From assembly GCA_003987725.1 (NCBI GenBank), contig RXJH01000013.1, positions 277,995 to 341,994 of the forward strand: a stretch of DNA of 64,000 nucleotides. The letters run 5' to 3'. The translations under genes were made by a program, and so were the position numbers. Below, piece by piece: positions 34,162-54,622 of this stretch. This stretch comes from Hyphomicrobium sp. (GTDB lineage: Bacteria > Pseudomonadota > Alphaproteobacteria > Rhizobiales > Hyphomicrobiaceae). The first letter of the stretch is position 1. The number at the start of each line of letters is the position of its first letter. Under the pieces are notes generated by a model, which saw only the letters and a list, made by a program, of their open reading frames with translations, did no database searches and had not been told where the DNA came from.

Positions 34162-35217
34162 TCATACCCCTTCAAGCAGCGCGTCGAGATCGAATGAGGA
34201 CTGTCGGCCGACGTTCATCCCATCCTTCTCGAGAAAAGACTCAGCCGAACGTCGTCCCTCGTCGCGCAGCATGCACAGGAATCCCCATTCGGCGTTCAGC
34301 TTCGAGGAGTAACCGAGCGTGGCCATTGCTTCGCTGGCAATGCGGTGGATGCGCATGCCTGCCCATAGCGCGCCTTCGCTGTTTCCCGGATCGGCGACCT
34401 GCCGCAGCATCGCGATCATGCGCAGCTCCTTCATCAGGACGGCATTGAACGAAACCTCGTTGAGCCGGTTGAGAATGTCACGCGCCGATTGCGGTATCTC
34501 GCTCCGCTCAATCGGATTGATCTGAACGAGGATCGTATCTTTGGAGGTGCATTCGCGAACGAGGGGTGTGATCGTGGGATTGCCGGAGTAGCCGCCGTCC
34601 CAATAGCTTTGTCCGTCGATTTCGACGGCCTGGAACAACGTCGGCAGACACGCCGACGCAAGCAGGACCTCAGGAGTGATGTCGGCGTTACGGAACACTC
34701 GGCCGCGGCCGGTATGCACGTTTGTAGCGGTAACGAACAGTTTGATGGGCGCGCGTGCCAGCCGTTCGAAATCGATGTTCCGGGTCAGAATCTCATGCAG
34801 CGGATTGGCGCCACCTGGATTGAGGTCATAGGGAGAGAAAACACGCGACATCAGATCCATCGCGATGAACATCGGCGAGGTGTCGAGCGTCCAGCGCCCG
34901 AGCATGACGTCGAGCGGCGTGCGCTGAAAAGGGCTGAGGAGCGCCGCTTGCGATACTTGACGCCAGTAGGCCTCTAAGGCGGCGCGAGCCTCTTCTGCTC
35001 CGCCGCGCGCGTGACCGTCGATTAAAACAGCGGCATTCATCGCACCGGCCGAGGTGCCGGAGATGCCGTCGATCTTCAGCCAGGGCTCTTCCAATAGGCG
35101 ATCGAGCACGCCCCAAGTAAAGGCGCCGTGCGAGCCACCGCCTTGCAAGGCAAGATCCACCGAACAGATATCGCGGTTGAGTTTCTTTCGAGCTTCAGAT
35201 TTTGCGTCGCCCATCAT
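34162..35217 (-). CDS. Patatin-like phospholipase
   Basis: 351 aa. The catalytic dyad and oxyanion hole are visible: GGGSHGAF (26-33), GTSAGAMNA (nucleophile Ser in GTSAG, about 54-58) and WDGGYSGNP (aspartate). It acts on lipid esters, probably in the cytosol or at the membrane; no signal peptide is seen. It is directly upstream of, and coupled to, the GntP permease, which hints at a link between lipid or polyester breakdown and organic-acid transport, but that is inference. Confidence 0.88.
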   Translation of the reverse strand: MMGDAKSEARKKLNRDICSVDLALQGGGSHGAFTWGVLDRLLEEPWLKIDGISGTSAGAMNAAVLIDGHARGGAEEARAALEAYWRQVSQAALLSPFQRTPLDVMLGRWTLDTSPMFIAMDLMSRVFSPYDLNPGGANPLHEILTRNIDFERLARAPIKLFVTATNVHTGRGRVFRNADITPEVLLASACLPTLFQAVEIDGQSYWDGGYSGNPTITPLVRECTSKDTILVQINPIERSEIPQSARDILNRLNEVSFNAVLMKELRMIAMLRQVADPGNSEGALWAGMRIHRIASEAMATLGYSSKLNAEWGFLCMLRDEGRRSAESFLEKDGMNVGRQSSFDLDALLEGV

Positions 35218-35582
35218 CGCTCACGTTGAAGCTTGAATACGCCTAAGCGCAGTGTAGAGAGCACGCGCAGAATGTCTCTTGTTTGAATGAAAGTATTTTT
35301 TGCAACGCGCGCTCTTCCTTATCGAAGTGTTTCCATTGCGCGTGTTGTTCAAATTCTATCGCGCGATTGAAGGAGAGATTAGCCTTAACCGGGCAAACGT
35401 TTGTCACGGCAGAATCGCGGGCATAGCTTTACGTCGCCGGGATTCTACAACTCGGCTTTAACTGCGCTCATCTCGAACGAACCACCTCACGCTAGCGACA
35501 TCCTAAGCACGCCGCGCCACGAACTCCTGGCTCACAACGCGCTTGCCCATCGGTGAAGTCTACCAATCGCGAGGTATTCCAA
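35218..35582. other. Divergent intergenic region
   Basis: Lies between the patatin and P450 genes and should contain both promoters. No clear promoter pair or operator seen. GAGG eight bases before 35583 is the P450 ribosome binding site. Confidence 0.45.
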
Positions 35583-37130
35583 ATGGAACGACGAGCATTT
35601 TTGTTCGGCACGGCAGCTGCCGCAACCGCAATAACGGCTCAACCCGCCGCCTCTCAATCACCCCCCGCCGCGGGACAACCGCTTGCGCCTGGCGATATAG
35701 AGGCAGCGGTGGCCCGGCTGCGCAAACAATACCTTGCGGAATTTGACCCGGCCTACGTTGAGAACGTGATCGTCCCGCATTTTCTCGTGAGTACGTATGC
35801 AGGCGAGCGCCTGTACCTTCCGATGATCGACGTCAAATTCACGAAGGAGAATGCACTTCCCTACGACCTTTGGGGCTTGCTGAGCGAAAGCTGGAAGCCC
35901 GCGCCTCAAGACGGAGTCACGGTTTTTCTGCAGGGTCTGGAGAAGCGAGGCCCGGACAATCGCCGGAAGCGCATCTACATGTCCGCGCTGACGCCGGATT
36001 TGTATGAGCCGATGTATAGCGAGAAGGTCGAGAATTTTTTCGATAAGCTTCTCGCCGAGAGCAACGCAAACAAGCCTCTGATGCGTCCCTATCTCGAAAC
36101 TTATTTCGACCTCTACTGGGATTTGCACTTGGGCGTTAAGGGAGACGCGGTTCCCGCCCGTGTCCGTCAGATTGGAGAGAGCTTCAATACCGTTCTCGCC
36201 TATCGCGACCCCACGCAAAAGATCGTCTACGATAACTATATGGAGGTGCGTAAACACCTTGCGTACCTGAAGGAATGGATTGACGAACGGATCGCAGATC
36301 TCAACAGCGGCGCGACGCCTGATCCCGAAAAAACCTTCACGTACTATTGGATCAAGAACGCGGGCGACGGAGAATATTTCGCGCATCAGGATGTGGTCTT
36401 CGAGGTCTTTCACAACTTTGTGGCGCTGAGCCAGTGGGGCAACACTCTCTACAACATCATGCTGAAGCTCGCGCGGGATACCGGCGATCCCGACACGAAG
36501 GCCTGGTTCACGAAGACAATGGAAAGCGATTACGACGACGCTGGAGGTAATGCGTTCACTCCACTCGAGCGATTTGTCATGGAGCTGTTTCGAACCATCA
36601 CGCCGAATGGCGGCAGCATCTCGGCTATGGAAGAGGTGCGGACGCCGCCCTATCAGCGCTTCGGCTATGTCGTAAGCCCGCATTGGGACACGAGCTTCGA
36701 CCCTGTGCAGTGGACAGATGCCGACAAGTTCAACCCGGATCGTTACAACAGCGTGCCGACAAGTCATCAAATCGATGAAGTCAAAGCCAAGCAGATTGGG
36801 TTTGCCAAATGCCCGTTCGATAGAACGGGGTTCGAGGTCAGCGATGGCCGGAAGGTGACGATGCACAACAGCGGTTTCGGTACGGTCTATGGCATCGTCG
36901 ACGAGAAGCCTTTGCCGGTATGTGACCATGCCGGCTTTGCGTCCTTTGGATTCGGCTATCGGCGCTGTCCGGGCGAGCAACTGACCATTCAAGTCTTCGA
37001 GGACTTCCTGCGGAAGGTATGGAAGAACAAGATCGATTTTCAAAAGCTCAACATCGCGAGCCCCGAGCCGCTGCCCATCGGTCCGACAACCGTCATTGCC
37101 GACAATGTCGGATTTACCAGGATGGCTTAG
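35583..37130 (+). CDS. Cytochrome P450-like protein with Tat signal
   Basis: 515 aa. The N-terminus is a twin-arginine signal (MERRAFLFGTAAAATA, with Ala-X-Ala near 21-24). The P450 body shows the K-helix ExxR as E334-L-F-R337, FNPDRYNS (383-390) as the PERF-like region, and the haem loop FGFGYRRCPGEQL (455-467) with Cys462. The I-helix region (FHNFVALSQWGNT, about 276-288) lacks the usual acid-threonine pair that handles oxygen, as in peroxygenase or isomerase-type P450s. Tat export carries folded, cofactor-loaded proteins. Substrate and electron donor are unknown; no ferredoxin or reductase adjoins it. The ATG at 35583 follows GAGG. Confidence 0.85.
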   Translation: MERRAFLFGTAAAATAITAQPAASQSPPAAGQPLAPGDIEAAVARLRKQYLAEFDPAYVENVIVPHFLVSTYAGERLYLPMIDVKFTKENALPYDLWGLLSESWKPAPQDGVTVFLQGLEKRGPDNRRKRIYMSALTPDLYEPMYSEKVENFFDKLLAESNANKPLMRPYLETYFDLYWDLHLGVKGDAVPARVRQIGESFNTVLAYRDPTQKIVYDNYMEVRKHLAYLKEWIDERIADLNSGATPDPEKTFTYYWIKNAGDGEYFAHQDVVFEVFHNFVALSQWGNTLYNIMLKLARDTGDPDTKAWFTKTMESDYDDAGGNAFTPLERFVMELFRTITPNGGSISAMEEVRTPPYQRFGYVVSPHWDTSFDPVQWTDADKFNPDRYNSVPTSHQIDEVKAKQIGFAKCPFDRTGFEVSDGRKVTMHNSGFGTVYGIVDEKPLPVCDHAGFASFGFGYRRCPGEQLTIQVFEDFLRKVWKNKIDFQKLNIASPEPLPIGPTTVIADNVGFTRMA

Positions 37131-38492: not shown

Positions 38493-38828
38493 CCGGGCCG
38501 TCGCATCCGCCCAATTCAATTCCATACGCGCGGAAGACGAAGGTGCCGGCGCGCGAAGACGGTCGCACCCAAGCTCCACACTGAATTCGGAAAAGCGGTC
38601 TCGCTGCAATTTCGCGAGGGTTGAAGGCCAACTGCGCGTCGCGTTGCCATGCAACGGCAAGCGAAATGGGAAATGGTGGCAATGACCGCTTTTCGTCATC
38701 TGCCTGATATCGACCAAAGCGGTCGAGCCAGACTGTCTTTTTATTCGACAGATGCTAGAAGCAGGCACCGTCGCCGAAATGCTGAGACGACCGCGGAACG
38801 CCACGGTCAGGGCAATAAGGAGGGTGTC
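38493..38828. other. Intergenic region, no gene seen
   Basis: No supported gene. It ends in AATAAGGAGG, the ribosome binding site of the gene at 38829. Confidence 0.5.
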
Positions 38829-39641
38829 ATGTTTCACCTAAGCCGCGTTTCTTCGGCCGTCTTCGCCCTATTGCTGCCGCTCATTCTTTCGAACGGCATT
38901 CGAGCCGAGAACCAGTTGCCCGATGATGGGCCTGCGTGGGCCAGCCTTCGTAAGGAAGTTTTCGGCGAAAGTGCCGTCGCCGATGGAAACGGCCTTGTCA
39001 TGCTGCAGGCGCCCGAGCGAGCGGAAGATGCGGCCATTGTTCCGATCACCGTCCGTTTGGCGCCGGCCTTCGCGAACAAGGTGAAGTTTCTGACGCTGAT
39101 CATTGATCAGAATCCGTCTCCCGTCGTCGCCAAATTCACATATGGCGAGGCCTCGGGAGGCGGCGAGCGGATAATGGGAACGCGAGTTCGTGTCGATCGA
39201 TATACCTTCATACGTGCGATTGCTGAGACGCGTGACGGCCAGCTATATATGACGCGGTCCTTTATCAAAGCTTCGGGTGGCTGCTCGGCTCCCGCGAGCC
39301 GAGATCCGGAAGAGGCCGAAAAAGCGATGGGCAAAATGCGGGTAAGAACCGCAATCCAAGCGGACGGATCGAGTCTGGGCGAGGTGATGATCCGCCATCC
39401 GAATATTTCCGGAATGGCGATTGACCAGATCTCGGGGGGCTACCCGCCAGCACGCTTTATCTCGAAGCTTGCGGTGACCACCGGCGGCAAGCTGATATTC
39501 GCGTTGGAAGGCGGGATCTCGATCAGCGAAGATCCGCATTTCCGCTTTTCATATGAGGCGAAGCCGGCCGATTCAATCGATGTCACAGCCGAGGACTCGA
39601 TGGGCACGAAATTCAGCGGGCGCTCCGGAAACCCGTCGTAG
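38829..39641 (+). CDS. Quinoprotein dehydrogenase-associated SoxYZ-like carrier
   Basis: 270 aa with a signal peptide (cleaved after about residue 26, IRA). The first part is SoxY-like and carries IKASGGCSAPASRD, with Cys152 where SoxY binds its sulfur cargo; the last 90 residues are SoxZ-like (MRVRTAIQ to the end). This fused carrier family usually accompanies PQQ-dependent alcohol dehydrogenases in methylotrophs; none is in this window. GGAGG lies six to seven bases before the ATG; a longer in-frame start at 38649 is unlikely. Confidence 0.88.
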   Translation: MFHLSRVSSAVFALLLPLILSNGIRAENQLPDDGPAWASLRKEVFGESAVADGNGLVMLQAPERAEDAAIVPITVRLAPAFANKVKFLTLIIDQNPSPVVAKFTYGEASGGGERIMGTRVRVDRYTFIRAIAETRDGQLYMTRSFIKASGGCSAPASRDPEEAEKAMGKMRVRTAIQADGSSLGEVMIRHPNISGMAIDQISGGYPPARFISKLAVTTGGKLIFALEGGISISEDPHFRFSYEAKPADSIDVTAEDSMGTKFSGRSGNPS

Positions 39642-40633: not shown

Positions 40634-42709
40634 ATGCCGAAGCAAGTCAATGTAGCAATTATCGGCGGTGGGCCCGGTGGATTATTTTCTGCTTGGCACT
40701 TGGCAGAGAAGGCCGGTTCCAGCTGCCAAATCACAATTTATGAAGCAAGTGAGCGTCTGGGAGGCAAGATCTCCACCGGACAATTCGCAGGCATTGGCCC
40801 CTACGAAGCCGGCGTCGCCGAGATCTACGATTACTCACGCATTGGACCCGATCCGCTACGCGATTTGATCGTCGATTATCTCGGTCTGAAGGTCAAATAT
40901 CTGGAGGGCGGACCGTGCGTTCTTGACGGCAAGATCGTCCCGACATCCGACGACCTTGGGAGAGAGTTTGGGGAACGCACCCAAGATGAAGTGAATGCAT
41001 TTCTGAAGCGCTGCGTCGATTTGATGAGCCCGGAAGATTATTATCTTTCCAATGCGCGAATGGATAACGAGCATTGTTGGGCCAACGTCTCTGCCGAATA
41101 CGTTCTTGCCACAGAGATCAAGGATGACGCCGCCCGGCGGTATGTGCGTGCATCAGCTCACAGCGACGTTGCCGCTCCTCCCCATCTGACGAATGGGCTC
41201 AATTTTCTGAAAAACGTCGTCGTCGATATTGACGGCTATATGGATATCTTCTCCGTCGTCGGTGGCAATGAGCAGATCGTTACGGGGCTTGTCGAAGAAC
41301 TCGATGCGGAAATACGCCTCGGCTCCAACGTCGTCGCGGTTGAGCCCCTGCTCGACGGTACATATAAAATAGAATTGCAGGCCAATGGCGTTCAAGAGAT
41401 AGCAACTGCCGACCTCGTCATTGTCGCACTGCCACTCACATCCCTTTCGACGATCTATTGGCGATCCGAGCCGCTGCAACAGGCGATCGGTAAACACGTC
41501 GCGTATTACGATCGTCCCGCTCACTATGTTCGAGCCACGCTGCTATTCAAGAGACCGTTCTGGCGTGAGCATCTTCCCACAGACTGGTGGTATATCGACG
41601 CGTTCGATGGAAGCTGCGTCTATGATGAAGGCGCTCGAAATGATTTTTCCGGTTGCGGAGCCTTAGCCTTCTTGATTGCTGGCAATGCCGCGCTGGCGCT
41701 GGCGAACTTGTCCGATGACCGCATCGAACGACTGTGCCTCGATGCCTTGCCGCCAGAACTCGCCGAAGGAAGAGATCTTATCATCGATCGGCGGATCCAT
41801 CGCTGGATGGCGTCGGTCAACGCTATACCCGGCGGCCTGCCGGTACGCCAACGCACCGATAGCCACCGCCCGGATCCAGAAAATCTTCCCGGACTTGTCC
41901 TGGTTGGAGATTATATTTTTGACGCGACGCTTAACGGCGCCTTTGATTCTGCGGACGCCGCAACAGACATCGTGATGGCGGAAATTCTGATCCGCCGCCG
42001 TGCGGAGCTTGGTGCACCAGACAGCGAACCAGCTCCGATAGCTGAAACTTTGGAGCAGCTGTGCCCCGTCTCGATTCTCGCCGACATACTGAGGGCGACA
42101 TGGGGCTTAGATAGAAATTCAAAGCTACTGCACGTCGGTGCTGGGCCGGGACGAACCGTCGCCGCACTGAGGGCTCTTGGCTACGACGCGATTGGTGTCG
42201 AGTGCAACAGGTCCGCGAACGCACCAATTTCACCGGAAGTTGCAGCATTTAGTGTCTGTTGTGAGTTTGACGACTTGCCATTCAAAGACCAGTCCTTTGA
42301 CGCTGTCATAGAGAGTGGGCTTTTCCGCCTTCCACAAAACAGGATTTCAAAAGCGATTGAGGAAATTCGGCGCGTAACACGGCATGGTCTCGTACTTGGG
42401 TCCGTTGCAACAGATTTGCCGATCGATCTGATCGAACGTCACGAACTTCTCAATAGTGTGGAGACGCTAGGCTCTCGGTGGGACTGGTCAGAGAAGCTTT
42501 GCGAAGCCGGCTTCAGTCACGCGCTGATGGATCCGGTGCTGCTCAACGAAGCCTGGAAGATCGCTGAAGCAGCCGGCGCCGGACCCGGACATTGGTTCGA
42601 AGATGCGGAAAGCCTGATGTACTGCATCTACGAGACCAAGCACGTTGAAGCCCAAAATGAGCTCCCCGGGCTCAGCTCACGCGATGACGTTTCGATTGCT
42701 GCCGAATAG
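40634..42709 (+). CDS. FAD-dependent amine oxidase fused to a SAM methyltransferase
   Basis: 691 aa. Residues 1-460 are a protoporphyrinogen-oxidase/amine-oxidase-like flavoprotein: VAIIGGGPGGLFSAWHL (7-23), ASERLGGKIST, and a C-terminal FAD contact LVLVGDYIFDATLNGAFDSA. Residues 480-650 are a class I methyltransferase with LLHVGAGPGRTVAAL (about 496-510) and an acidic GVECN. No signal peptide. Both halves look intact, so one chain could oxidise and methylate the same small molecule; that is inference. It is followed 15 bases later by a tail-anchored protein. A cluster of carotenoid or porphyrin genes is not seen nearby. Confidence 0.85.
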   Translation: MPKQVNVAIIGGGPGGLFSAWHLAEKAGSSCQITIYEASERLGGKISTGQFAGIGPYEAGVAEIYDYSRIGPDPLRDLIVDYLGLKVKYLEGGPCVLDGKIVPTSDDLGREFGERTQDEVNAFLKRCVDLMSPEDYYLSNARMDNEHCWANVSAEYVLATEIKDDAARRYVRASAHSDVAAPPHLTNGLNFLKNVVVDIDGYMDIFSVVGGNEQIVTGLVEELDAEIRLGSNVVAVEPLLDGTYKIELQANGVQEIATADLVIVALPLTSLSTIYWRSEPLQQAIGKHVAYYDRPAHYVRATLLFKRPFWREHLPTDWWYIDAFDGSCVYDEGARNDFSGCGALAFLIAGNAALALANLSDDRIERLCLDALPPELAEGRDLIIDRRIHRWMASVNAIPGGLPVRQRTDSHRPDPENLPGLVLVGDYIFDATLNGAFDSADAATDIVMAEILIRRRAELGAPDSEPAPIAETLEQLCPVSILADILRATWGLDRNSKLLHVGAGPGRTVAALRALGYDAIGVECNRSANAPISPEVAAFSVCCEFDDLPFKDQSFDAVIESGLFRLPQNRISKAIEEIRRVTRHGLVLGSVATDLPIDLIERHELLNSVETLGSRWDWSEKLCEAGFSHALMDPVLLNEAWKIAEAAGAGPGHWFEDAESLMYCIYETKHVEAQNELPGLSSRDDVSIAAE

Positions 42710-45910: not shown

Positions 45911-46540
45911 ATGAGTAACATCCGCCCAGCACCCATATTCATCGCCGATGCCAAGGGTTTGGACTTCCTGAACTCCCTTGCCACGCCGGTTGATACCCCT
46001 GTCGAATGGCTTGGTTCCGGCGACGACTTCTTGGCATGGCTCAAAGCGGCTGATCTCGTTCCAACCGATGTTCTTAAAACTTTAAAGGCTGGAGCCTTGC
46101 CGGGCGAATTGGATGCAGTTGCTGCGCATGCCCGCTCGCTGCGCGAGTGGTTTCGCGGCTTTGTTCGAAAGCACAAGGGCAGGACCCTGAAGCCGAGTAC
46201 CCTGCAGCAGCTAGACCCCCTCAATCGGATTCTGGAGCGTGACGAGGTTTTTGGCCAGGTCGCTCCTCGCGACCACGAAACCATGGCGACGAACGGGTCT
46301 TCCCTGATGTGGGTAGAGCAACGCCGTTGGCGTTCACCGGAAAGCCTTCTTCAGCCGATTGCACGAGAAATGGCGAACGTGATCTGTAATGAGGATTTCA
46401 ACCTCATCAGAGCTTGCGAGGGACATGCCTGTACGCTGATGTTCGTCGATCGCACCAAAAGTCACCGAAGGCGGTGGTGCAGCATGGCTGTCTGTGGTAA
46501 CCGCGCAAAACAGGCCGCGCTTCGCGAACGATCAAGGTGA
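45911..46540 (+). CDS. CGNR zinc-finger (ABATE-domain) protein
   Basis: 209 aa. The ABATE front (GLDFLNSLATPVDTPVEWLGSG, shortened to GLDFLNSLATP) and helical middle end in a zinc finger: HACTLMFVDRTK, then CSMAVCGNRAKQAA. CGNR proteins are thought to be transcription regulators of adjacent stress or catabolic genes. The divergent hydrolase operon and the palindrome between them fit that. Confidence 0.88.
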   Translation: MSNIRPAPIFIADAKGLDFLNSLATPVDTPVEWLGSGDDFLAWLKAADLVPTDVLKTLKAGALPGELDAVAAHARSLREWFRGFVRKHKGRTLKPSTLQQLDPLNRILERDEVFGQVAPRDHETMATNGSSLMWVEQRRWRSPESLLQPIAREMANVICNEDFNLIRACEGHACTLMFVDRTKSHRRRWCSMAVCGNRAKQAALRERSR

Positions 46541-46755
46541 TCTCTGAGCTGAACCGAAGTCGCCCGCGCGATGTTAGCAACGCTGCAATCTGGGTTCGTA
46601 CATCCCAATGCAGACGCGATTGCGCTTAGAAAGAAATGTCACCGGAAATACCTAAACATTTTCGATACAATATGCTTTGGATAATCGGCGCGCTTTGGGA
46701 GGGGCTAGCCGGGCAATCTTACCAATAAGTCCTTTTTTTCTATGAGGGCGAGGCA

Positions 46756-47970
46756 ATGCGATTTTTCAATTTTCGGAAATCTCAGGCCCGCGGGTCTAAA
46801 CGCGGTTTTCGAATTCCCGACATGACGTATGTGCGGGATCTCGGCGAACTTTTAGAAAGTCGCGCGGAGTTGGCCTCGTACCCTGTTGTTTCAAGAATCC
46901 CAGATTGTGAACTCAGGCCAACACCGCCTCTCCTTTTCCCGGCGTCTCAAGAAATCGCCTCAGATCATTACATGGTCCCATCCATCAGAGATGTAGTAAT
47001 GGCCGGGATGAAGAACGTCACGATAACGGAAAATTCCGTTATCGGAACGGAAGATGAGATTCTCTCGCCCGGTGATGCCGTGCAACCGATGTACGTCTCG
47101 ATATATCTGAGAAATGGCTGGGTGCCCGATGCGGAGACACGGCCCGGAGCCAAGAAACAACTCAAGTGCAAGGGTATCGGTGTTCTTCTCACTCACTTCA
47201 ACAGCAGTGTTTACGGGCACTGGCTTTACGAAGGCTTGCCGCAGCTACTTCTCCTAAAACATCTGAGGAGCGAGCTACCGGACCTTTCGATCGTACTCCC
47301 GAGCCGGCCTCAGTACTTGAGCGAATGGTGTCGCTTCCTTGTTCCAGACGTCCGGATTTTCAGTTATGATCCACGCCGTGAAACTGTTTTTTGCGAGCAG
47401 CTCCTGATTCCGGGAATCTTCCACTCCAACTCAGCGTTCATGCACCCATTCTTGGACGTCATGATTGAGGATGCTGTATCGACAGCGACCCGAGAGAGCG
47501 AACGTCCGCTCCCATCCCATATTTATCTGACACGAAATAAGCCGAGCCATTTCCGGCAGTTGGGAAATCAGGATGAGATCGAACAAATTGCCAAATCGGC
47601 GGGCCTCACGTTATTAAGCCCTGAAGACTATTCGATACCGGCCCAAATCCGATTGTTTTCTGGAGCCAAGCTCGTTGTCAGCGAGTTCGGCTCGGCTCTC
47701 CACAATACGATGTTCTCCGGTCCCTGTGACATCATCAGCCTCAATTGGATCACCTGCATACAGTCGAGAATCGCGCAGCTGAGGCAACAGAACATTGGAT
47801 ATGTCCTGCCGCCTCTCGGCCCTCTTACGTTTCAACGCGAGCTCGAGCAGACAAAGCGCGAATATTGGATTGACCCTGAGGACTTCCGTCGCAAGCTTGC
47901 GGAGCGCCTCCATCGCGAACCCTTGCGCGTGCCCGAAAACGATTCCACTTCTGTCGACTTCCAAGGTTGA
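46756..47970 (+). CDS. Glycosyltransferase family 61 protein
   Basis: 404 aa. YGHWLYEGLPQLLLL is the first GT61 block. Near the C-terminus HIYLTRNKPSHFRQ, GLTLLSPEDYSIPAQIRLF and KLVVSEFGSALHNTMF are the donor-binding DUF563 pattern. Likely adds a sugar to a surface glycan in the cytoplasm; sugar unknown. GAGGG precedes the ATG. It opens a lower-GC cluster of glycan genes. Confidence 0.87.
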   Translation: MRFFNFRKSQARGSKRGFRIPDMTYVRDLGELLESRAELASYPVVSRIPDCELRPTPPLLFPASQEIASDHYMVPSIRDVVMAGMKNVTITENSVIGTEDEILSPGDAVQPMYVSIYLRNGWVPDAETRPGAKKQLKCKGIGVLLTHFNSSVYGHWLYEGLPQLLLLKHLRSELPDLSIVLPSRPQYLSEWCRFLVPDVRIFSYDPRRETVFCEQLLIPGIFHSNSAFMHPFLDVMIEDAVSTATRESERPLPSHIYLTRNKPSHFRQLGNQDEIEQIAKSAGLTLLSPEDYSIPAQIRLFSGAKLVVSEFGSALHNTMFSGPCDIISLNWITCIQSRIAQLRQQNIGYVLPPLGPLTFQRELEQTKREYWIDPEDFRRKLAERLHREPLRVPENDSTSVDFQG

Positions 47971-48201
47971 AAACCGATGGGCCGACGTCCGGGAATGGTT
48001 GAGAGGCCGATGCATCGTTGTCACCAAGCACCATTGGTTTCCTATTGTTCGACTTCGCTGAACTATTGTTGCGGCGAACATGGGCTTTGCCCTAATATGA
48101 GTCTCTCTCCAGACTAGGGCGAACTGTTGTGGCCGGCATCGCAATGGGCCGGTCTGCTGAACTCAACGTTTGCGCCCTGAGAAGCGAGTTTACCTGCCAC
48201 C

Positions 48202-49089
48202 ATGACACACACTTCTCGTCACACATATGAGTACGACGTCGATCTCGACAGCGACGCAGCGCCTGCTCGAGTGATCAGAATGGTAGGCAGCGGTAAGAAG
48301 GTTCTCGAAATCGGGGCGGGGCCAGGGTCCATCACCAAACATCTGTCCGGCACGCTTGGTTGCGATGTGGTCGCCGTCGAGATCGACCCATCGGCCTTGG
48401 AAAGGCTCGCGCCCTTTGCGCGAAGAGTTTATGCGTTGGACCTGAATGATGGTTCTTGGAATGATCGCATCAGAGCTGACGAAGGCACCTTTGACGTCGT
48501 GATTGCCGCGGATGTTCTAGAGCATGTCTACGACCCTTGGGCCGTTTTAAGCGGCATGAAATCGCTCTTGAACGAAAGCGGAGCGGTCATCTTATCCATC
48601 CCCCACGTCGGCCATGCGGCTATTGCGGGCTGTCTCTTCGATGAAGACTTCGAGTACAGGCCCTGGGGGCTTCTCGACCGTACTCACATTCGCTTTTTTG
48701 GATTGAAGAACATCCAGCAGCTGTACAATTCTCAGGGCTTATCGATCGAGCATTCGGAATTCGTCGTCAGAACTCCAGAAATGACCGAGTTTGTACGGCG
48801 GTGGAATAGGCTTCCGCGCAAGGTGCAGGAAGCACTCGAGAGCAATCGCTTTTCCCATGTATATCAGGTCGTCAGCCGAGCGGTCCCGCAAAGTCGGGCG
48901 GAGCTCAATTTGCGGCTCATGGATTTGGACGTGCCCGCCCCAGACGACCGAACTGTGAGGTACTGGAAAAAGACGATGAGTTCGATTCCCCCGCTGGAGG
49001 ACGAAGACGCATCTTCTTCATTGATCAAAAAGAGCGGTGTTTCGATTGGTAATTTTTTTAAGCTAACGCAGAGTCGCGGGAGAGCCTAA
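48202..49089 (+). CDS. Class I SAM-dependent methyltransferase
   Basis: 295 aa. VLEIGAGPGSITKHL (about 34-48) is the SAM loop; VVAVEIDPSAL and VVIAADVLEHVYDPW follow the standard order. DRTHIRFFGLKN is frequent in methyltransferases of surface-glycan clusters. It ends two bases before the WbsX gene, so they are co-translated and probably modify the same glycan. Confidence 0.88.
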   Translation: MTHTSRHTYEYDVDLDSDAAPARVIRMVGSGKKVLEIGAGPGSITKHLSGTLGCDVVAVEIDPSALERLAPFARRVYALDLNDGSWNDRIRADEGTFDVVIAADVLEHVYDPWAVLSGMKSLLNESGAVILSIPHVGHAAIAGCLFDEDFEYRPWGLLDRTHIRFFGLKNIQQLYNSQGLSIEHSEFVVRTPEMTEFVRRWNRLPRKVQEALESNRFSHVYQVVSRAVPQSRAELNLRLMDLDVPAPDDRTVRYWKKTMSSIPPLEDEDASSSLIKKSGVSIGNFFKLTQSRGRA

Positions 49090-49091
49090 AC

Positions 49092-50309
49092 GTGTCTGAT
49101 CGTTCCCGTGTCAAGCTGCTTGCATTCTATTTGACCCAATTTCATCCAATTCCCGAAAATGACGCTTGGTGGGGAAAGGGGTTCACGGAGTGGACCAATG
49201 CTGCAAAGGCAACCCCTCTTTTCCCAGGCCACTATCAACCGCACTTGCCGACGGATTTGGGCTTCTATGATTTGCGGGTTGCTGAAACGAGAAGGGAGCA
49301 AATACAGCTAGCCAAGCAATACGGAATCCACGGTTTCTGTTATTATTATTATTGGTTCGCGGGCAAACGCCTCCTCGAAAGGCCGCTCGATGACATGCTG
49401 GCCGATCCTCAAAGCGATATGCCGTTTTGTCTTTGCTGGGCGAATGAGAATTGGACGCGCAGGTGGGATGGCGCTGAAAAAGAAATTTTGATTGAGCAAA
49501 GTTATGGTCCGGATTCAGATCTAAGAGTTATTCAGGATCTTCTGAAGTATCTGCGAGATCCTCGATATATCCGCGTTGATGGGGCTCCACTTATTATTGT
49601 CTACTGCCCTCAGCGTCTTCCTGATTGCCGTGAAACCCTTAGGGTTTGGCGCGAATATTGCGCCGAACAGGGAATACCCCGCATCCACACGGCTTGTGCC
49701 CTCACCCATTCGAATTGGGATCACAAAGAATTGGGATTCGATAGCGCTGTAGAGTTTCCCCCACACAACATGAAGTTCGAAAACCTAGCGCAGCAGATGT
49801 CATTCTTTCAGACATTCCACGGCTACTGCTCGGATTATGCCGATGTTGCTGAAATGTATTTGCAGCGCCGTTATAGTTCTGAGGCAAGTGGGTTTAGGGG
49901 GGTGTTTCCGTCTTGGGACAACACGGCGCGATGCGGTGAAAGGGCAACCGTTGTTTTGAACGGTTCGCCGGAAAACTATGAGTACTGGCTATCCGAGGCG
50001 ATATCGAGAACGGTTGAGGATTTCCCGACTGAAGAACGGTTTGTATTTATAAACGCCTGGAATGAATGGGCCGAGGGTTGTCATCTTGAGCCTGACCGCA
50101 AGTTTGGTCATCGCTATTTGGAAGCTACCGTACGGGCAAAAAAGGGTTCGTCGCTCCGAGGGTGGACGCACCGGGGAGTTCCCCGGACCGAGCAATCCTC
50201 TCCGGCCGCAGCCATGGCAAAACATCGGTTGGCAGAAAAGTCATGGCTGAGCCGCAACTGGCGTACGTTAAAACGAACTTTGCGGCCGAAGAAGACGGCG
50301 AATAACTAA
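49092..50309 (+). CDS. WbsX-like glycan enzyme (GH99-like domain)
   Basis: 405 aa from a GTG two bases after the methyltransferase stop. LAFYLTQFHPIPENDAWWGK, the tyrosine run GFCYYYYWFAGKRLLE, CWANENWTRRWDG and FINAWNEWAEGCHLEPD are the WbsX signature. WbsX proteins occur in O-antigen clusters and have a GH99/TIM-barrel-like fold. Their precise reaction is unsettled. Base composition is lower in GC than the flanks. Confidence 0.87.
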   Translation: MSDRSRVKLLAFYLTQFHPIPENDAWWGKGFTEWTNAAKATPLFPGHYQPHLPTDLGFYDLRVAETRREQIQLAKQYGIHGFCYYYYWFAGKRLLERPLDDMLADPQSDMPFCLCWANENWTRRWDGAEKEILIEQSYGPDSDLRVIQDLLKYLRDPRYIRVDGAPLIIVYCPQRLPDCRETLRVWREYCAEQGIPRIHTACALTHSNWDHKELGFDSAVEFPPHNMKFENLAQQMSFFQTFHGYCSDYADVAEMYLQRRYSSEASGFRGVFPSWDNTARCGERATVVLNGSPENYEYWLSEAISRTVEDFPTEERFVFINAWNEWAEGCHLEPDRKFGHRYLEATVRAKKGSSLRGWTHRGVPRTEQSSPAAAMAKHRLAEKSWLSRNWRTLKRTLRPKKTANN

Positions 50310-50440
50310 CTAGAAAATTTCATGTGTTTTCTGAAATCGACGCGGAAACTTCCCGTTGGCTCCAACCGAAGCCGGAAGGAAGTTCGCGATGGCTCGATCC
50401 AATTCATAAAATACGGCCAAATTGAATTTGGAAGGTTCCG

Positions 50441-51214
50441 TCAACCGGAAATCACCCGGCCTATATTCCAAATTCGACGAAAGCGGTTGCGAAACTTTCT
50501 TTTCGCAAAAGCGTATATCTCTTGGTCGACTTCTGTCATCGAGTAGATCGCTTTAAGAGTGGCAGAGGAGAGCGAAGATTTCTTGATCTCCACGCTGGAA
50601 TTCTCATGGGGCACATACGACCGATCAAAATCGAGCTGCTTGCCAATCACGAGCGCATCTTCGTCGAATGTCTCTGTAAATCCGACAAAGTCGAAACGCT
50701 CAAGATTGCGTTTTGCAAACTTCAGCACATCGTCGACAGAGTAGTCCTTTATGGTCGGCGCTGATTTTCCGTCAGGTTTATAATCCCAGCCTCGAGCGAG
50801 TTGCCAAGCTTGATTATTCCAAATCAGATTATGGCAATCTTGTCGAAGAGGATCGTCGCCGTGATCGCCGACAGCCAGCTCGATGAACTGGTCGATATCC
50901 AATCGAGATGCAGCTTCATAAATAGCATATTCGCGAGGATCCCGGCCTCGGCAGAACGAGTAAAAGGAGATGATCCGATCTAGCGGGTCCCGCAGAAAGG
51001 TGAATGAATATCTGCCCGCAAAAAAGCGCTCCGCCAACGAAAAACCGAAATGGCCCGAAATAAAGGGTTTCGGGCAATAATCCTCGGGCTCTTGCGTCAG
51101 CCAATCTCCGTGGCTGATTATGTTTTCGGCTCCGTAGTGCTCGCGAGCCATGTAGACGATAGATGTGCCCGCCGTCTTCTGAGTATGAAGAAAAACCGCT
51201 TGTCGAAACGCCAA
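50441..51214 (-). CDS. Sulfotransferase family protein
   Basis: 257 aa starting at TTG, chosen because AGGAGG lies seven bases upstream; an in-frame start at 51250 would add 12 poor residues. FLHTQKTAGTSI is the 5'-phosphosulfate loop of PAPS and TFLRDPLDRIISFYSFC the 3'-phosphate motif. It should transfer sulfate from PAPS, most likely to a glycan given the neighbours. Confidence 0.85.
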   Translation of the reverse strand: MAFRQAVFLHTQKTAGTSIVYMAREHYGAENIISHGDWLTQEPEDYCPKPFISGHFGFSLAERFFAGRYSFTFLRDPLDRIISFYSFCRGRDPREYAIYEAASRLDIDQFIELAVGDHGDDPLRQDCHNLIWNNQAWQLARGWDYKPDGKSAPTIKDYSVDDVLKFAKRNLERFDFVGFTETFDEDALVIGKQLDFDRSYVPHENSSVEIKKSSLSSATLKAIYSMTEVDQEIYAFAKRKFRNRFRRIWNIGRVISG

Positions 51215-51380
51215 GTCGCAGCCTCCTGAAAAGCAATCTCGGCCGCGCAAGCAGGCAGAAAGTCTATGCCGTTTGATCCTGGCTAAAGATTATAAAATCG
51301 CAAAAATTCAACACAAGCGACACGGGACGGGTTACCCACTGCTTGTGCACGCCGGGATTCGGTATTGATTTGAACTACAT

Positions 51381-52199
51381 CTAAAGACGCCAGCGTCGTC
51401 TCTCAGCCGCGCCTCTCTTGATATAATGTTCTCTTGGCTTCATGCCGCTGATGAGGACGTCGGGATTTAAAGCCAGATAAACAGCATCGTTGAATGCTCG
51501 TGGCAGGCGCGGTCCTTTTTCAACCGGCCAATTCATAAGCGCATTGTCGTCAAGCTTGCCGTCAAAATAGCCCGCCTGAAATCCCAGGCGCCGTGCCACA
51601 AAATTGAACGAGAGCTGATCGCGGTAGGAATACTTACGCACCTCATCAAACCAGGCGGACATTAAAGTCCGAACGCGCGGATCATTATGTCGACGCAGAA
51701 TCATACTGCCCGCGATGAGGCCTGCGTTTTCAGGATGCCCCAAACGCCGATATTCATCCATCTGCTTAGAAACAGTTCCGGCAGCGTCAATCTTCCAGTC
51801 AATCACGACCTGAGCTTCCGCATAGATGCAGCACCGCTCCGGATGTCGGAAGACGACCATAGGTTCCAAAGAATCGTGAAGATAGCGGAATATGCGATCT
51901 AAGTTCACTTTCGGTTCGACACGATTGTCGATGTACAGGCTCAGGTCGTATGGGGCGACAAACTCGTGCGCGAGTATCTTGACCATCTTCGATGTTCTGA
52001 CGGGACCGAGCGAGGGTGAATCAACGTAGCGGAACTGCCAATGCTTGGAGGTCAATGATCGATCATCCGTAAAGCAAATGGCGTCGGTTTTGGCGTCGAC
52101 TTCGATTGGCCAATCGGCGAATGGCTCCGAATGTCCGAACATGCATGTATAGATGACGCGATCTTTTTGCCCCATCGTGTGAAGAGTGTCCCTCAGCAT
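51381..52199 (-). CDS. DUF616-type glycosyltransferase-like protein
   Basis: 272 aa. RVIYTCMFGHSEPFAD, then FTDDRSLTSKHW, SLYIDNRVEPKVN and FRHPERCCIYAEAQVV are the DUF616 pattern of putative cytoplasmic glycosyltransferases. The final 40 residues (FNDAVYLALNPDVLIS, GMKPREHYIKRGAAE) match a short repeat found at the ends of many surface-glycan glycosyltransferases. It follows the sulfotransferase on the minus strand in map order but is transcribed away from the WbsX group. Confidence 0.8.
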   Translation of the reverse strand: MLRDTLHTMGQKDRVIYTCMFGHSEPFADWPIEVDAKTDAICFTDDRSLTSKHWQFRYVDSPSLGPVRTSKMVKILAHEFVAPYDLSLYIDNRVEPKVNLDRIFRYLHDSLEPMVVFRHPERCCIYAEAQVVIDWKIDAAGTVSKQMDEYRRLGHPENAGLIAGSMILRRHNDPRVRTLMSAWFDEVRKYSYRDQLSFNFVARRLGFQAGYFDGKLDDNALMNWPVEKGPRLPRAFNDAVYLALNPDVLISGMKPREHYIKRGAAERRRWRL

Positions 52200-52894
52200 T
52201 ACCTAGGTCTCGCGAAAGACTTCGGCGCAACAAAATCACGAAACGGCCGGAAGCAAGATGGTCGGCCGATTTCTTCATATAGTCGCCATGACTCACGAGA
52301 TGAATGAGCGTGATACATGATCGACAAACTGGTCTAGTCTGCTCGGCGGAATGTTCCGCACAGGCGGCTGGCCTCAAACTTTGATGATTGATTGCTCCTT
52401 CGCGTCTGCTGGCAGTGATCGATCGCTTCTCTGCTAGAAGACCCCTTTCAGTTTACCGGAATATTCCGTGGCCGCAAACCTCCGAAAGCTTGTGCCCGCA
52501 GTAGATCGAACCCGCGTCCAGAACTTTGTTTGCTTTGTGAGCTAAGACGCGCTGACCGGATTGTCTCCTCCGCACCGTGAGCCTTCGCGCTCGTTGTCAC
52601 CGCCTAGGCCGATCGATTTTAGGCGGGCGCTCGCGGACAAAATGGCTTCAGGTTTTCGCGCCGCACGAAGAAGCACACCGCCGCGCGAACCAACGTCAAT
52701 CCGGACAGTTGCGTTGCAGCATTACAAATGAGGCCTCTCCTCCTGAGTATCATTTCATGATCCCCCCCATAAGTTTACGAGTAATTGCAAAATATATATG
52801 CGCTGCGGAATCATGAAAACGCATTGAACTCGCGCGTTTGGAGGATACGCTGTCGACCGAGGCGACCAGCGTCTCAAGGGCCTTCTGAATTAAC
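52200..52894. other. Divergent intergenic region, no gene seen
   Basis: Nearly 700 bases between the DUF616 gene and the sulfatase-type gene. Reading frames are short and unconvincing. The AT-rich stretch around 52740-52815 may be the promoter of the gene at 52895. Confidence 0.4.
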
Positions 52895-54622
52895 ATGAGT
52901 GCCGAACTGGTTCATCGAACTGGATCGCCGATCCTCATCGGCACGCATGCGCTTGATCGCAAGCTTTCGGCTTCCGCAGTTTGGTATGCGACGAGCGCAA
53001 TTGCGGTTGGTCTTGCTTATTACCACTGGTGTTATGAAGGTTGGCGCGACACCATCATCTTCGCGGGAGCTATCACGGCAGCACTTATTTTTGCGCTGAC
53101 GTTTGTTTCCAGACGCATCCTTTTTTCTATTACGCTCATTGCCCTCTTGGTTGCGACGATCGTGATTGCCGCCGATGTCAAGCAGCACTACGTCGAGATG
53201 GTGCTGCATGCCTACGACGTTGTGTTTTACCTGACGTCCTGGTCGACAATCGTCTTCCTCTGGGTCGACCACAGATCGTTGCTGCTCGCGCTTCTCGCGA
53301 TGATCGCGGTTGCCATCGTCTCGGGCCTAGTGCTTTGGCATTTCGACAGCTCGCGTGTCCCTCGTCGCTTCAGTGGCGGATTGTTCGTTCTCTGTGTGGC
53401 GCTGAGTATGGGGGCGAGCTACGCAAAAGGAGAGCGGGGGAATACCCAGTTTTACTGGGATCATCTTTACGTCTCGTCATTTTATTCATCGTGGTCGGAG
53501 ACGCTCCAGACGTTGTGGAAGGGTCAACTGTTCGATGCTCTGAAATCTCAACCGATGCCGCCCTTCAAAATACCAACATGCGCGCTCAACCGGAAGCCGC
53601 CGCACATTATTCTCATTCACCAGGAAAGCGCCTTTCCACCCTCATACTTTTCGGAAATCAGCTATGACCACCGGCTCGATCCATTCTTCAAATCGTTCGA
53701 CGGCCGCCTCCACAAGCTGCGCGTAGAAACCTACGGTGGAGCATCATGGCTCACCGAGTTCTCGGTCCTCGCTGGCGTCTCATCCTATTCATTTGGCGGT
53801 ATGCGTACGTTCGTCCAATCGCTGATGCAGGGGAAGATCCACGACGCCGTTCCGCAGGTTCTGGCGCGCTGCGGATATCACAATAGTGTCTTCTACCCGG
53901 TTCCGAAGGCATTCGTATCGAACGATCGCTTCTACACGTCCGTCGGAATGCCGGAGATTTTTGATTACCGGGCGCAGGGGGCAAAGCGCTTCGATGAGCG
54001 CGATCGATTCTACTACGCTAACGCGCTGAACGATATCGAACGCCACATTGCATTGTCGAATAGCCCGCTTTTCACCTTCGTTATAACGTCGGCGACGCAC
54101 CTTCCGTACACCAAGACGTACGAACCGAACGTGCAAGTCTCGGGCGGCGGCCCTGGAACTGATCCCGAAATGAACGAATACCTGCGCCGTCTTGGGTTGG
54201 CGCACATGGACTACGACGAATTTAGGACGGCACTCTCAAAGCGCTTTCCAGGCGAGCGCTTCCTCATCGTCCAATACGGTGATCACCAACCGATCGCAAC
54301 GCGCACGCTTCTCGGCTTCGACGCGACTTCGTTCGCGGAAGACATCAAGCTGACGCCGGAAAGCCGCGGCCTGCTGACCTACTACTCCGTCGATGGCGTA
54401 AACTACGATCCCCCGTCCTTGCCGGAGATCGACGTTCTTGATGTGCCTTATCTTGGCACGATCATGCTTCAAGCGGCGCGGTTGCCATTGCCTGATTCCT
54501 ATCAAGAACGGCTACGCCTGTTGGCTCTCTGCCAAGGCCGCTACTTTACATGTACGAAGTCGCAGGAGATCCTGGCCTTTCACCGAAGGCTTATGGATTC
54601 GGGCCTGATTGAAGCGCGATGA
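52895..54622 (+). CDS. Sulfatase/LTA-synthase-like membrane enzyme
   Basis: 575 aa. Five N-terminal helices (to about residue 175) are followed by a periplasmic alkaline-phosphatase-superfamily domain. HIILIHQESAFPPSYFS carries the first metal-site Glu, TEFSVLAG is the conserved middle, VITSATHLPYT and VQYGDHQP are the later metal ligands. This is the layout of MdoB/LTA-synthase phosphoglycerol transferases and of cell-surface phosphoethanolamine transferases. The substituent is not readable from sequence. It ends the glycan cluster. Confidence 0.87.
   Translation: MSAELVHRTGSPILIGTHALDRKLSASAVWYATSAIAVGLAYYHWCYEGWRDTIIFAGAITAALIFALTFVSRRILFSITLIALLVATIVIAADVKQHYVEMVLHAYDVVFYLTSWSTIVFLWVDHRSLLLALLAMIAVAIVSGLVLWHFDSSRVPRRFSGGLFVLCVALSMGASYAKGERGNTQFYWDHLYVSSFYSSWSETLQTLWKGQLFDALKSQPMPPFKIPTCALNRKPPHIILIHQESAFPPSYFSEISYDHRLDPFFKSFDGRLHKLRVETYGGASWLTEFSVLAGVSSYSFGGMRTFVQSLMQGKIHDAVPQVLARCGYHNSVFYPVPKAFVSNDRFYTSVGMPEIFDYRAQGAKRFDERDRFYYANALNDIERHIALSNSPLFTFVITSATHLPYTKTYEPNVQVSGGGPGTDPEMNEYLRRLGLAHMDYDEFRTALSKRFPGERFLIVQYGDHQPIATRTLLGFDATSFAEDIKLTPESRGLLTYYSVDGVNYDPPSLPEIDVLDVPYLGTIMLQAARLPLPDSYQERLRLLALCQGRYFTCTKSQEILAFHRRLMDSGLIEAR

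What the first reader, a model, noticed from the sequence alone, without database searches (positions are those of the whole stretch)
35583..37130. A cytochrome P450 with a twin-arginine export signal
Bacterial P450s are cytoplasmic as a rule. Here ERRAFLFG plus a hydrophobic stretch and Ala-X-Ala precede a body with ExxR (334-337), FNPDRY and a clear haem loop (Cys462). The I-helix lacks the acid-threonine pair used to activate oxygen, as in peroxide-using or rearranging P450s, which need no electron partner and so would suit the periplasm. This may be a periplasmic peroxygenase or hydroperoxide isomerase.
Basis: partly seen in the sequence, partly recalled or inferred. Interest (0 to 1): 0.82.

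Follow-up and report, generated by a model that had tools for sequence, protein, structure and literature searches.

The report
Exported cytochrome P450 in soil bacteria
The gene encodes an unusual member of the cytochrome P450 enzymes with a built-in export tag, so it probably works outside the cell's main compartment, where the normal electron supply of such enzymes is missing and a peroxide may drive it instead.

Summary
Window 35583-37130 (+) encodes a 515-residue, very divergent P450: haem loop FGFGYRRCPG (Cys462), ExxR 334-337, FNPDRY 383-388. The genome is of the genus of Hyphomicrobium facile. The N-terminus MERRAFLFG plus a hydrophobic stretch is a convincing Tat signal: translated and under purifying selection in four Hyphomicrobium copies, and N-terminal and in frame in 11 of 13 family members against 0 of 52 ordinary P450s. 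In a twelfth member it lies in another reading frame; the Calothrix member lacks it. All four mycobacterial signals end in a lipobox, a second export mark.

The family is rare and scattered: Hyphomicrobium, mycobacteria, plasmids of Paraburkholderia, Serratia and Calothrix, and a prophage-like contig. Helix I has invariant Gln284-Trp285 where 28 of 31 ordinary P450s have Asp/Glu and 30 of 31 have Thr. About 50 extra residues precede the haem loop, with two invariant cysteines.

It is not a CYP152 (no Arg-Pro); CYP74 membership is unsupported. Best reading: a Tat-exported P450 using peroxide or a hydroperoxide in the periplasm. Export is well supported; peroxide use is inferred, and ferredoxin or Rieske-reductase genes near the P450 gene in two of five Hyphomicrobium loci speak against it. 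The substrate is unknown.

The parts
35571..35574 (+). GAGG, ribosome-site-like, 8 nt before the ATG
   Evidence: GAGG 7-8 nt before the ATG in 4 of 4 close Hyphomicrobium copies
35583..37130 (+). Tat-signal-bearing divergent cytochrome P450, 515 aa
35583..35654 (+). Twin-arginine signal peptide, residues 1-24 (MERRAFLFGTAAAATAITAQPAAS)
   Evidence: cleavage site read by eye
36384..36473 (+). Helix I, residues 268-297, broken at residue 284 in the model; invariant HNFVA.SQWGN
36432..36443 (+). Gln284-Trp285-Gly286-Asn287 where ordinary P450s have acid-Thr-(Thr/Ser)
   Evidence: ungapped; one search gives a register one residue off
36582..36593 (+). ExxR, residues 334-337 (ELFR)
   Evidence: E334 and R337 invariant in 41 aligned P450s
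36729..36746 (+). FNPDRY (PERF-like), residues 383-388
36747..36944 (+). Stretch between FNPDRY and the haem loop: 66 residues here, 66-67 in 10 family rows, 7-16 in 31 ordinary P450s
36810..36812 (+). Cys410, invariant in 13 of 13; possible disulfide partner
36921..36923 (+). Cys447, invariant in 13 of 13; possible disulfide partner
36945..36974 (+). Haem-binding loop FGFGYRRCPG, residues 455-464, ligand Cys462

Best explanation
The gene encodes a cytochrome P450 that takes up haem and folds in the cytoplasm, is carried folded through the Tat pore, and works in the periplasm (as a lipid-anchored protein on the outer face of the membrane in mycobacteria). There NAD(P)H-ferredoxin chains are not at hand, and the protein lacks the acid-threonine proton relay that ordinary P450s use to split O2. 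It most likely reacts directly with hydrogen peroxide, or with a substrate that is itself a hydroperoxide, to oxidise or rearrange a hydrophobic compound from outside the cell; in three relatives the gene is followed by an outer-membrane channel gene of the Phenol_MetA_deg type. The gene has no partner gene conserved across the family and travels between bacteria on plasmids and apparently a prophage. Shown: P450 motifs, translated Tat signal, lipoboxes, missing acid-threonine pair, patchy spread, changing neighbours. Inferred: export in the living cell, haem binding, peroxide use, hydrophobic substrate.
For: P450 identity; model pLDDT 76.8, pTM 0.83, all 50 PDB fold matches shown are P450s. 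Tat signal N-terminal in 11 of 13 family rows against 0 of 52 ordinary P450s; a twelfth, L005, has MRRRVFLAGG...SVAGC in another frame just upstream. Lipobox (MAGC, LAGC, LTAC, VAGC) in 4 of 4 mycobacterial copies. Purifying selection on codons 1-24. TatC in the genome. Gln284-Trp285 in 13 of 13 where 31 ordinary P450s have D/E in 28 and T in 30. No neighbour conserved across the family: apart from synteny between the two closest Hyphomicrobium genomes, only the Phenol_MetA_deg gene recurs next to it (by BLAST in 2 loci; by Pfam domain in 3). PGAP calls both proteobacterial plasmid copies 'twin-arginine translocation signal domain-containing protein'. Precedent: the b-haem oxygenase Lcp takes up haem in the cytoplasm and leaves by Tat (PMC6311187, passages); Tat export of haem proteins needs haem loading (PMC6708511, passages).
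Against: Localisation was not measured and no signal-peptide predictor was available; only 2 of 13 members match TIGR01409 and 2 of 13 Pfam TAT_signal at E up to 1. The Calothrix member has no usable signal in the 450 bases upstream (one short RRRVYFAFFY piece runs into a stop), yet keeps the same helix I and both cysteines, so neither is tied strictly to export. Possible electron partners lie near the gene in two Hyphomicrobium genomes, on the same strand downstream: in H. facile a Fer4 ferredoxin (about 1.3 kb) and a Rieske-flavoprotein reductase (about 1.9 kb), with two minus-strand ORFs between; in G060 the Rieske-flavoprotein gene, in two frames, about 0.2 kb downstream. I found none beside the window's gene or in the other loci, by a crude motif search within 4 kb. 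Some P450 monooxygenases lack the acid-alcohol pair (recalled). No peroxide-forming partner is conserved.
Confidence: 0.5

Rival explanations
1. P450 monooxygenase that uses O2 and is fed electrons, either in the periplasm by an unknown donor (cytochrome c, quinol, a surface flavoprotein) or, before or without export, by a ferredoxin chain.
For: Ferredoxin and/or Rieske-flavoprotein reductase genes downstream on the same strand in 2 of 5 Hyphomicrobium loci. A ferric-reductase-like gene about 0.9 kb upstream of the M. hodleri copy. A SoxYZ-like quinoprotein-associated carrier gene 1.5 kb downstream in the window.
Against: None of these recurs across the family; the acid-threonine pair is absent in 13 of 13.
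Confidence: 0.25
2. A special case inside the best explanation (the odds overlap): hydroperoxide isomerase or lyase of the kind of CYP74, prostacyclin synthase or linoleate diol synthase, acting on lipid hydroperoxides in the cell envelope.
For: Invariant amide residues Gln284 and Asn287 in helix I; such enzymes often have Asn or Gln near the iron and are self-sufficient (PMC13049297 and PMC10813956, passages).
Against: The register of the amides differs; none of these enzymes is in the 50 fold matches shown of 1258 or the 27 PDB sequence matches. No lipoxygenase (0 of 10 genomes or records) or animal-type haem peroxidase (0 of 7) was found in hosts, but neither search rang in its 14 controls, so this is weak.
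Confidence: 0.2
3. Exported haem-thiolate protein that is not an oxygenase, for example a peroxide scavenger or a haem or gas binder.
For: Trp285 may crowd the oxygen site if the ungapped register is right.
Against: ExxR, PERF-like and haem-loop motifs are kept together with a large invariant core, as expected of an active P450.
Confidence: 0.12
4. Ordinary cytoplasmic P450; the N-terminus is not a working signal.
For: The Calothrix member lacks a signal; bacterial P450s are cytoplasmic as a rule (recalled).
Against: N-terminal Tat motif in 11 of 13 against 0 of 52, purifying selection on it, lipoboxes in 4 of 4 mycobacterial copies.
Confidence: 0.1

Closest known systems
CYP152 fatty-acid peroxygenases (CypC/P450BSbeta, SPalpha, OleT)
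   Same: P450 fold; acid-threonine pair missing; RCPGE..T stretch at the haem loop. The CypC model is the NCBIfam model matched by most members, 12 of 13 at E up to 1, best E 3.8e-5.
   Different: No Arg-Pro at the pair; the window's protein scores 14.7 bits against a cut-off of 600; about 50 extra residues before the haem loop; Tat signal; profile comparison no better than with other P450 groups.
CYP74 clan, prostacyclin synthase (CYP8A1), fungal linoleate diol synthase P450 domains
   Same: Amide residues in helix I; these act on O-O bonds without redox partner.
   Different: Register of the amides does not coincide; not in the 50 fold matches shown; bacterial export.
Lcp rubber oxygenases (Tat-exported b-haem oxygenases)
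   Same: Works like: haem taken up inside, folded protein exported by Tat (PMC6311187, passages); acts on hydrophobic matter outside.
   Different: His/Lys-ligated haem in Lcp of strain K30; the Pfam scan of this protein gives p450 only.
Ordinary bacterial P450s
   Same: ExxR, PERF-like and Cys haem loop, overall fold.
   Different: 12-18% identity to 31 of them; no acid-threonine pair; insertion; export signal.

Membership tests
Cytochrome P450 superfamily | Cys haem loop FxxGxRxCxG, ExxR and PERF-like motif | tested here: met
   E334, R337, F455, G458, C462, G464 invariant in the 41 rows of A4; in the 13 family rows G458 is Ser in L011 and L012
Cytochrome P450 superfamily | P450 fold | tested here: met
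   pLDDT 76.8, pTM 0.83; all 50 PDB matches shown of 1258 are P450s, but at modest TM-scores of about 0.45-0.63 and rmsd 5-9 A. Partly circular: 31 of 41 alignment rows were ordinary P450s; with family rows alone the model failed (pLDDT 41.7)
Cytochrome P450 superfamily | Haem-thiolate spectrum (450 nm CO band) | not testable with these tools
   needs purified protein
Pfam PF00067 | score over the curated cut-off of 22.8 bits | tested here: not met
   21.2 bits for this protein; all 13 members match at E up to 1, best 6.8e-7
Tat substrates | N-terminal RR motif, moderately hydrophobic stretch, peptidase or lipobox site | tested here: met
   11 of 13 in frame, a twelfth in another frame, against 0 of 52 N-terminal controls; sites read by eye
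Tat substrates | match to the TAT signal models TIGR01409 / Pfam TAT_signal | tested here: inconclusive
   2 of 13 members each at E up to 1; the window's protein matches neither
Tat substrates | TatC-dependent export | not testable with these tools
   TatC gene present
CYP152 peroxygenases | Arg-Pro in place of the acid-alcohol pair | tested here: not met
   Gln-Trp in 13 of 13; Arg-Pro as the family mark from PMC5818669 (passages) and in 9 fetched CYP152s
CYP152 peroxygenases | NCBIfam NF053744 score over cut-off | tested here: not met
   14.7 bits against 600 for the window's protein
CYP152 peroxygenases | uses H2O2 to oxidise fatty acids | not testable with these tools
   assay needed
CYP74/PGIS/LDS type | Asn or Gln of helix I at the distal iron position | tested here: inconclusive
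   Gln284 and Asn287 invariant, register unsettled; no model coordinates to measure
CYP74/PGIS/LDS type | closest in sequence or fold to this clan | tested here: inconclusive
   not among the 27 PDB sequence matches or the 50 fold matches shown of 1258; no direct comparison with CYP74 sequences was made
Lcp rubber oxygenases | Lcp domain | tested here: not met
   Pfam scan at E 0.01 lists p450 only

The most novel reading that the evidence does not exclude
A mobile family of bacterial P450s that live outside the cytoplasm: exported by Tat in Pseudomonadota, lipid-anchored on the outside of the membrane in mycobacteria, carried by plasmids and a prophage, driven by peroxide through a Gln-Trp-Gly-Asn helix I seen in none of the P450s compared here, with a disulfide-locked insertion beside the haem loop.
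Probability: 0.38. Interest if true: 0.85.

Novelty: new variant of a known kind. Interest (0 to 1): 0.72.

Why it matters
Bacterial P450s are taken to be cytoplasmic enzymes tied to NAD(P)H electron chains (recalled). A family exported by Tat would show that P450 chemistry also runs in the periplasm or at the mycobacterial surface, with another oxidant. It would also give naturally secreted bacterial P450s, which biocatalysis currently seeks among fungal peroxygenases (recalled), and a new setting of the distal site in which to ask what replaces the acid-threonine pair.

Tried and rejected
Membership in CYP152 was tried by motif, by NCBIfam score and by profile comparison with nine of the ten CYP152-type loci fetched for the purpose (L086, split into two genes, was left out). 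hhalign scores of the family profile: CYP152 88.2 (E 4.9e-11); a mycobacterial group 93.4 (E 1e-11; these rows had been found with the family profile, so biased); a class I-like group 88.0 (E 7.4e-11); two other groups 81.5 and 74.8 (the group names are mine). There is no preference for CYP152. Of 27 PDB sequence matches at E up to 10 about half are CYP152-type by their names, but the best of these has E 0.025 and the best of all 0.022; two rows are chance matches to a clostridial neurotoxin chain.

Neighbours as a clue to substrate: the divergent patatin gene (34162-35217), transporters, acyl-CoA dehydrogenases and others differ between loci (Pfam was run on chosen neighbours, not all). Only the Phenol_MetA_deg gene recurs next to the P450 gene, in 3 loci: 112 bp downstream in Serratia, 161 bp in Paraburkholderia, about 0.9 kb in Calothrix. 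Two mycobacterial loci share a zinc alcohol dehydrogenase at 34% identity some 2-5 kb away, taken as chance. The first neighbour comparison used ORFs of 90 aa or more, which could miss ferredoxins; a second with shorter ORFs and iron-sulfur patterns brought out the H. facile ferredoxin, and its other pattern hits look like chance (most not tested by Pfam).

A source of lipid hydroperoxides: no animal-type haem peroxidase in 7 genomes and no lipoxygenase in 10 genomes or records, but both controls were silent, so nothing follows. A first structure model from family rows alone was useless (pLDDT 41.7). A disulfide Cys410-Cys447 could not be measured: no coordinates, and low confidence there.

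Papers: searched for periplasmic, secreted, exported or Tat-borne bacterial P450s; none was seen in the listings (20 of 24, 8 of 8, 15 of 35, 12 of 13 and 2 of 2 papers listed). The library lacks most subscription journals.

The isomerase rival went from 0.25 to 0.20 and the cytoplasmic one from 0.08 to 0.10 to make the odds consistent.

Full report
What is there. Window 35583-37130 (+) is one open frame of 515 residues in a genome of 4.25 Mb of the genus of Hyphomicrobium facile: the H. facile relative (88% identity) lies on a contig of the same length as that of a same-genus genome (list). It is a P450 at the edge of recognition: Pfam p450 E 1.4e-4, just under the curated cut-off, and no phmmer match in the PDB at E up to 1. 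All 13 family members match p450, and a profile of the family matches 24 ordinary P450s with E 8e-12 over 312 columns (20 of the 24 had been found with the family profile). ExxR (334-337), FNPDRY (383-388) and the haem loop with Cys462 are where they should be. The genome has four ordinary P450s besides.

The family. Thirteen distinct members were collected: the window and four other Hyphomicrobium copies, four mycobacterial copies (two in one genome, Mycolicibacterium komossense), plasmids of Paraburkholderia, Serratia and Calothrix, and a viral contig represented by two records. Identity across phyla is 54-65%. The family is rare: 5 of 103 genomes of the bacterial family searched, all in one genus, 22 of whose genomes are listed; only the window's own genome among 385 of its class and 398 of its phylum, both drawn evenly; only the seed among 396 of the actinobacterial phylum. 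Among 301 genomes of the mycobacterial family, 21 matched, but 20 of these are weak matches to ordinary P450s. 3 of 72,556 plasmid records match, 0 of 50,697 phage records, and none of the E. coli genomes with the Serratia gene as DNA query. The genome-contig scan (4 loci) uses exact short patterns and will have missed members.

Mobility. In the tree, one Hyphomicrobium copy (L009) groups with the viral contig and the two proteobacterial plasmids (100/99), apart from the other four Hyphomicrobium rows (99/100), and the mycobacterial copies form their own group (100/99). The viral contig carries integrase pieces, head-maturation protease, portal and terminase beside the P450 gene. The plasmid copies lie among transposase genes in Paraburkholderia and Serratia. 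The gene appears to move.

Export. MERRAFLFGTAAAATAITAQPAAS has the twin arginines, a mild hydrophobic stretch and a plausible cleavage site. In a uniform test 11 of 13 family rows have such a motif in the first 10 residues; of 52 scored ordinary P450s (53 examined) two were flagged, both about 50 residues inside the frame. Of the two family rows without it, L005 has an RR...SVAGC signal in another frame immediately upstream of its body, so its gene is either broken or mis-sequenced; the Calothrix gene has no usable one in 450 bases upstream (a short RRRVYFAFFY piece there ends in a stop). All four mycobacterial signals end in a lipobox (MAGC, LAGC, LTAC, VAGC). The signal is translated: over codons 1-24 the six pairings of four Hyphomicrobium copies give pN/pS of 0.09-0.25, and a GAGG sits 7-8 nt before the ATG in all four. 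NCBI's pipeline named both proteobacterial plasmid copies for the Tat signal, though only 2 of 13 match TIGR01409 at E up to 1 here. TatC is encoded in the genome.

Active site. In an alignment with 31 ordinary P450s without gaps in helix I, Gln284 stands at the acid position (D or E in 28 of 31) and Trp285 at the alcohol position (T in 30 of 31); the family has HNFVA(L/F)SQWGN in 13 of 13. A profile alignment shifts this by one residue (Ser283-Gln284), and a CYP152 profile alignment places the helix differently again; in none of the three does an acid-alcohol pair or an Arg-Pro fall at that site. The model breaks helix I at 284. Between FNPDRY and the haem loop the family has 66-67 residues (10 rows) against 7-16 in the 31 others, with Cys410 and Cys447 invariant in 13 of 13; in four Hyphomicrobium proteins these are the only cysteines besides the ligand. 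A disulfide would fit the periplasm, but Calothrix keeps both without a signal.

Neighbours. Across 13 loci no gene is conserved beside the P450 gene except the outer-membrane channel gene of the Phenol_MetA_deg type in three, leaving aside the synteny of H. facile and G060. Against a partner-free enzyme speaks that these two genomes have, downstream on the same strand, a Rieske-flavoprotein reductase gene (G060 at about 0.2 kb, in two frames; H. facile at about 1.9 kb) and in H. facile a Fer4 ferredoxin gene at about 1.3 kb. I found nothing of the kind beside the window's gene or in the other loci by a crude pattern search within 4 kb.

Mechanism. Outside the cytoplasm there is no NAD(P)H chain (established knowledge), no partner gene is conserved, and the proton relay for splitting O2 is absent. 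Peroxide or hydroperoxide use is the simplest reading; it is an inference. The channel gene hints at a hydrophobic substrate from outside. The Tat route for a b-haem oxygenase has a precedent in Lcp (PMC6311187, passages), and Tat export of haem proteins needs haem loading (PMC6708511, passages). Comparison with known peroxygenases and isomerases used passages of PMC5818669, PMC13049297 and PMC10813956.

Novelty. Five searches of open-access full texts listed no Tat-exported or periplasmic bacterial P450; most subscription papers are not held, and not every hit was listed, so this is not proof. It is a new family within a known superfamily, with a new location, hence a new variant of a known kind.

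Noticed in passing
L013 1-8225 and L014 1-6991: A Tat-signal P450 beside integrase pieces and phage head genes (protease, portal, terminase) in IMG/VR contigs, apparently prophage cargo.
   Followed up: partly
L005 about 5950-6060: M. neglectum copy: Tat plus lipobox signal in a different frame from the P450 body; broken gene or sequencing error.
   Followed up: partly
L002 8884-10926 and L037 10768-12296: Ferredoxin and Rieske-flavoprotein reductase genes downstream of the P450 gene in H. facile; Rieske-flavoprotein gene in two frames in G060.
   Followed up: partly
window 38649-39641: SoxYZ-like fusion of the quinoprotein-dehydrogenase-associated type (TIGR04557, E 9.8e-77).
   Followed up: no
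window 40634-42709: Flavin amine-oxidase domain and methyltransferase domain in one 691-residue protein.
   Followed up: no
window 34162-35217: Patatin-like phospholipase gene divergent from the P450 gene; not found beside the gene in relatives.
   Followed up: partly
window 46501-54000: G+C of 50-55% against about 60% in the first half of the window.
   Followed up: no
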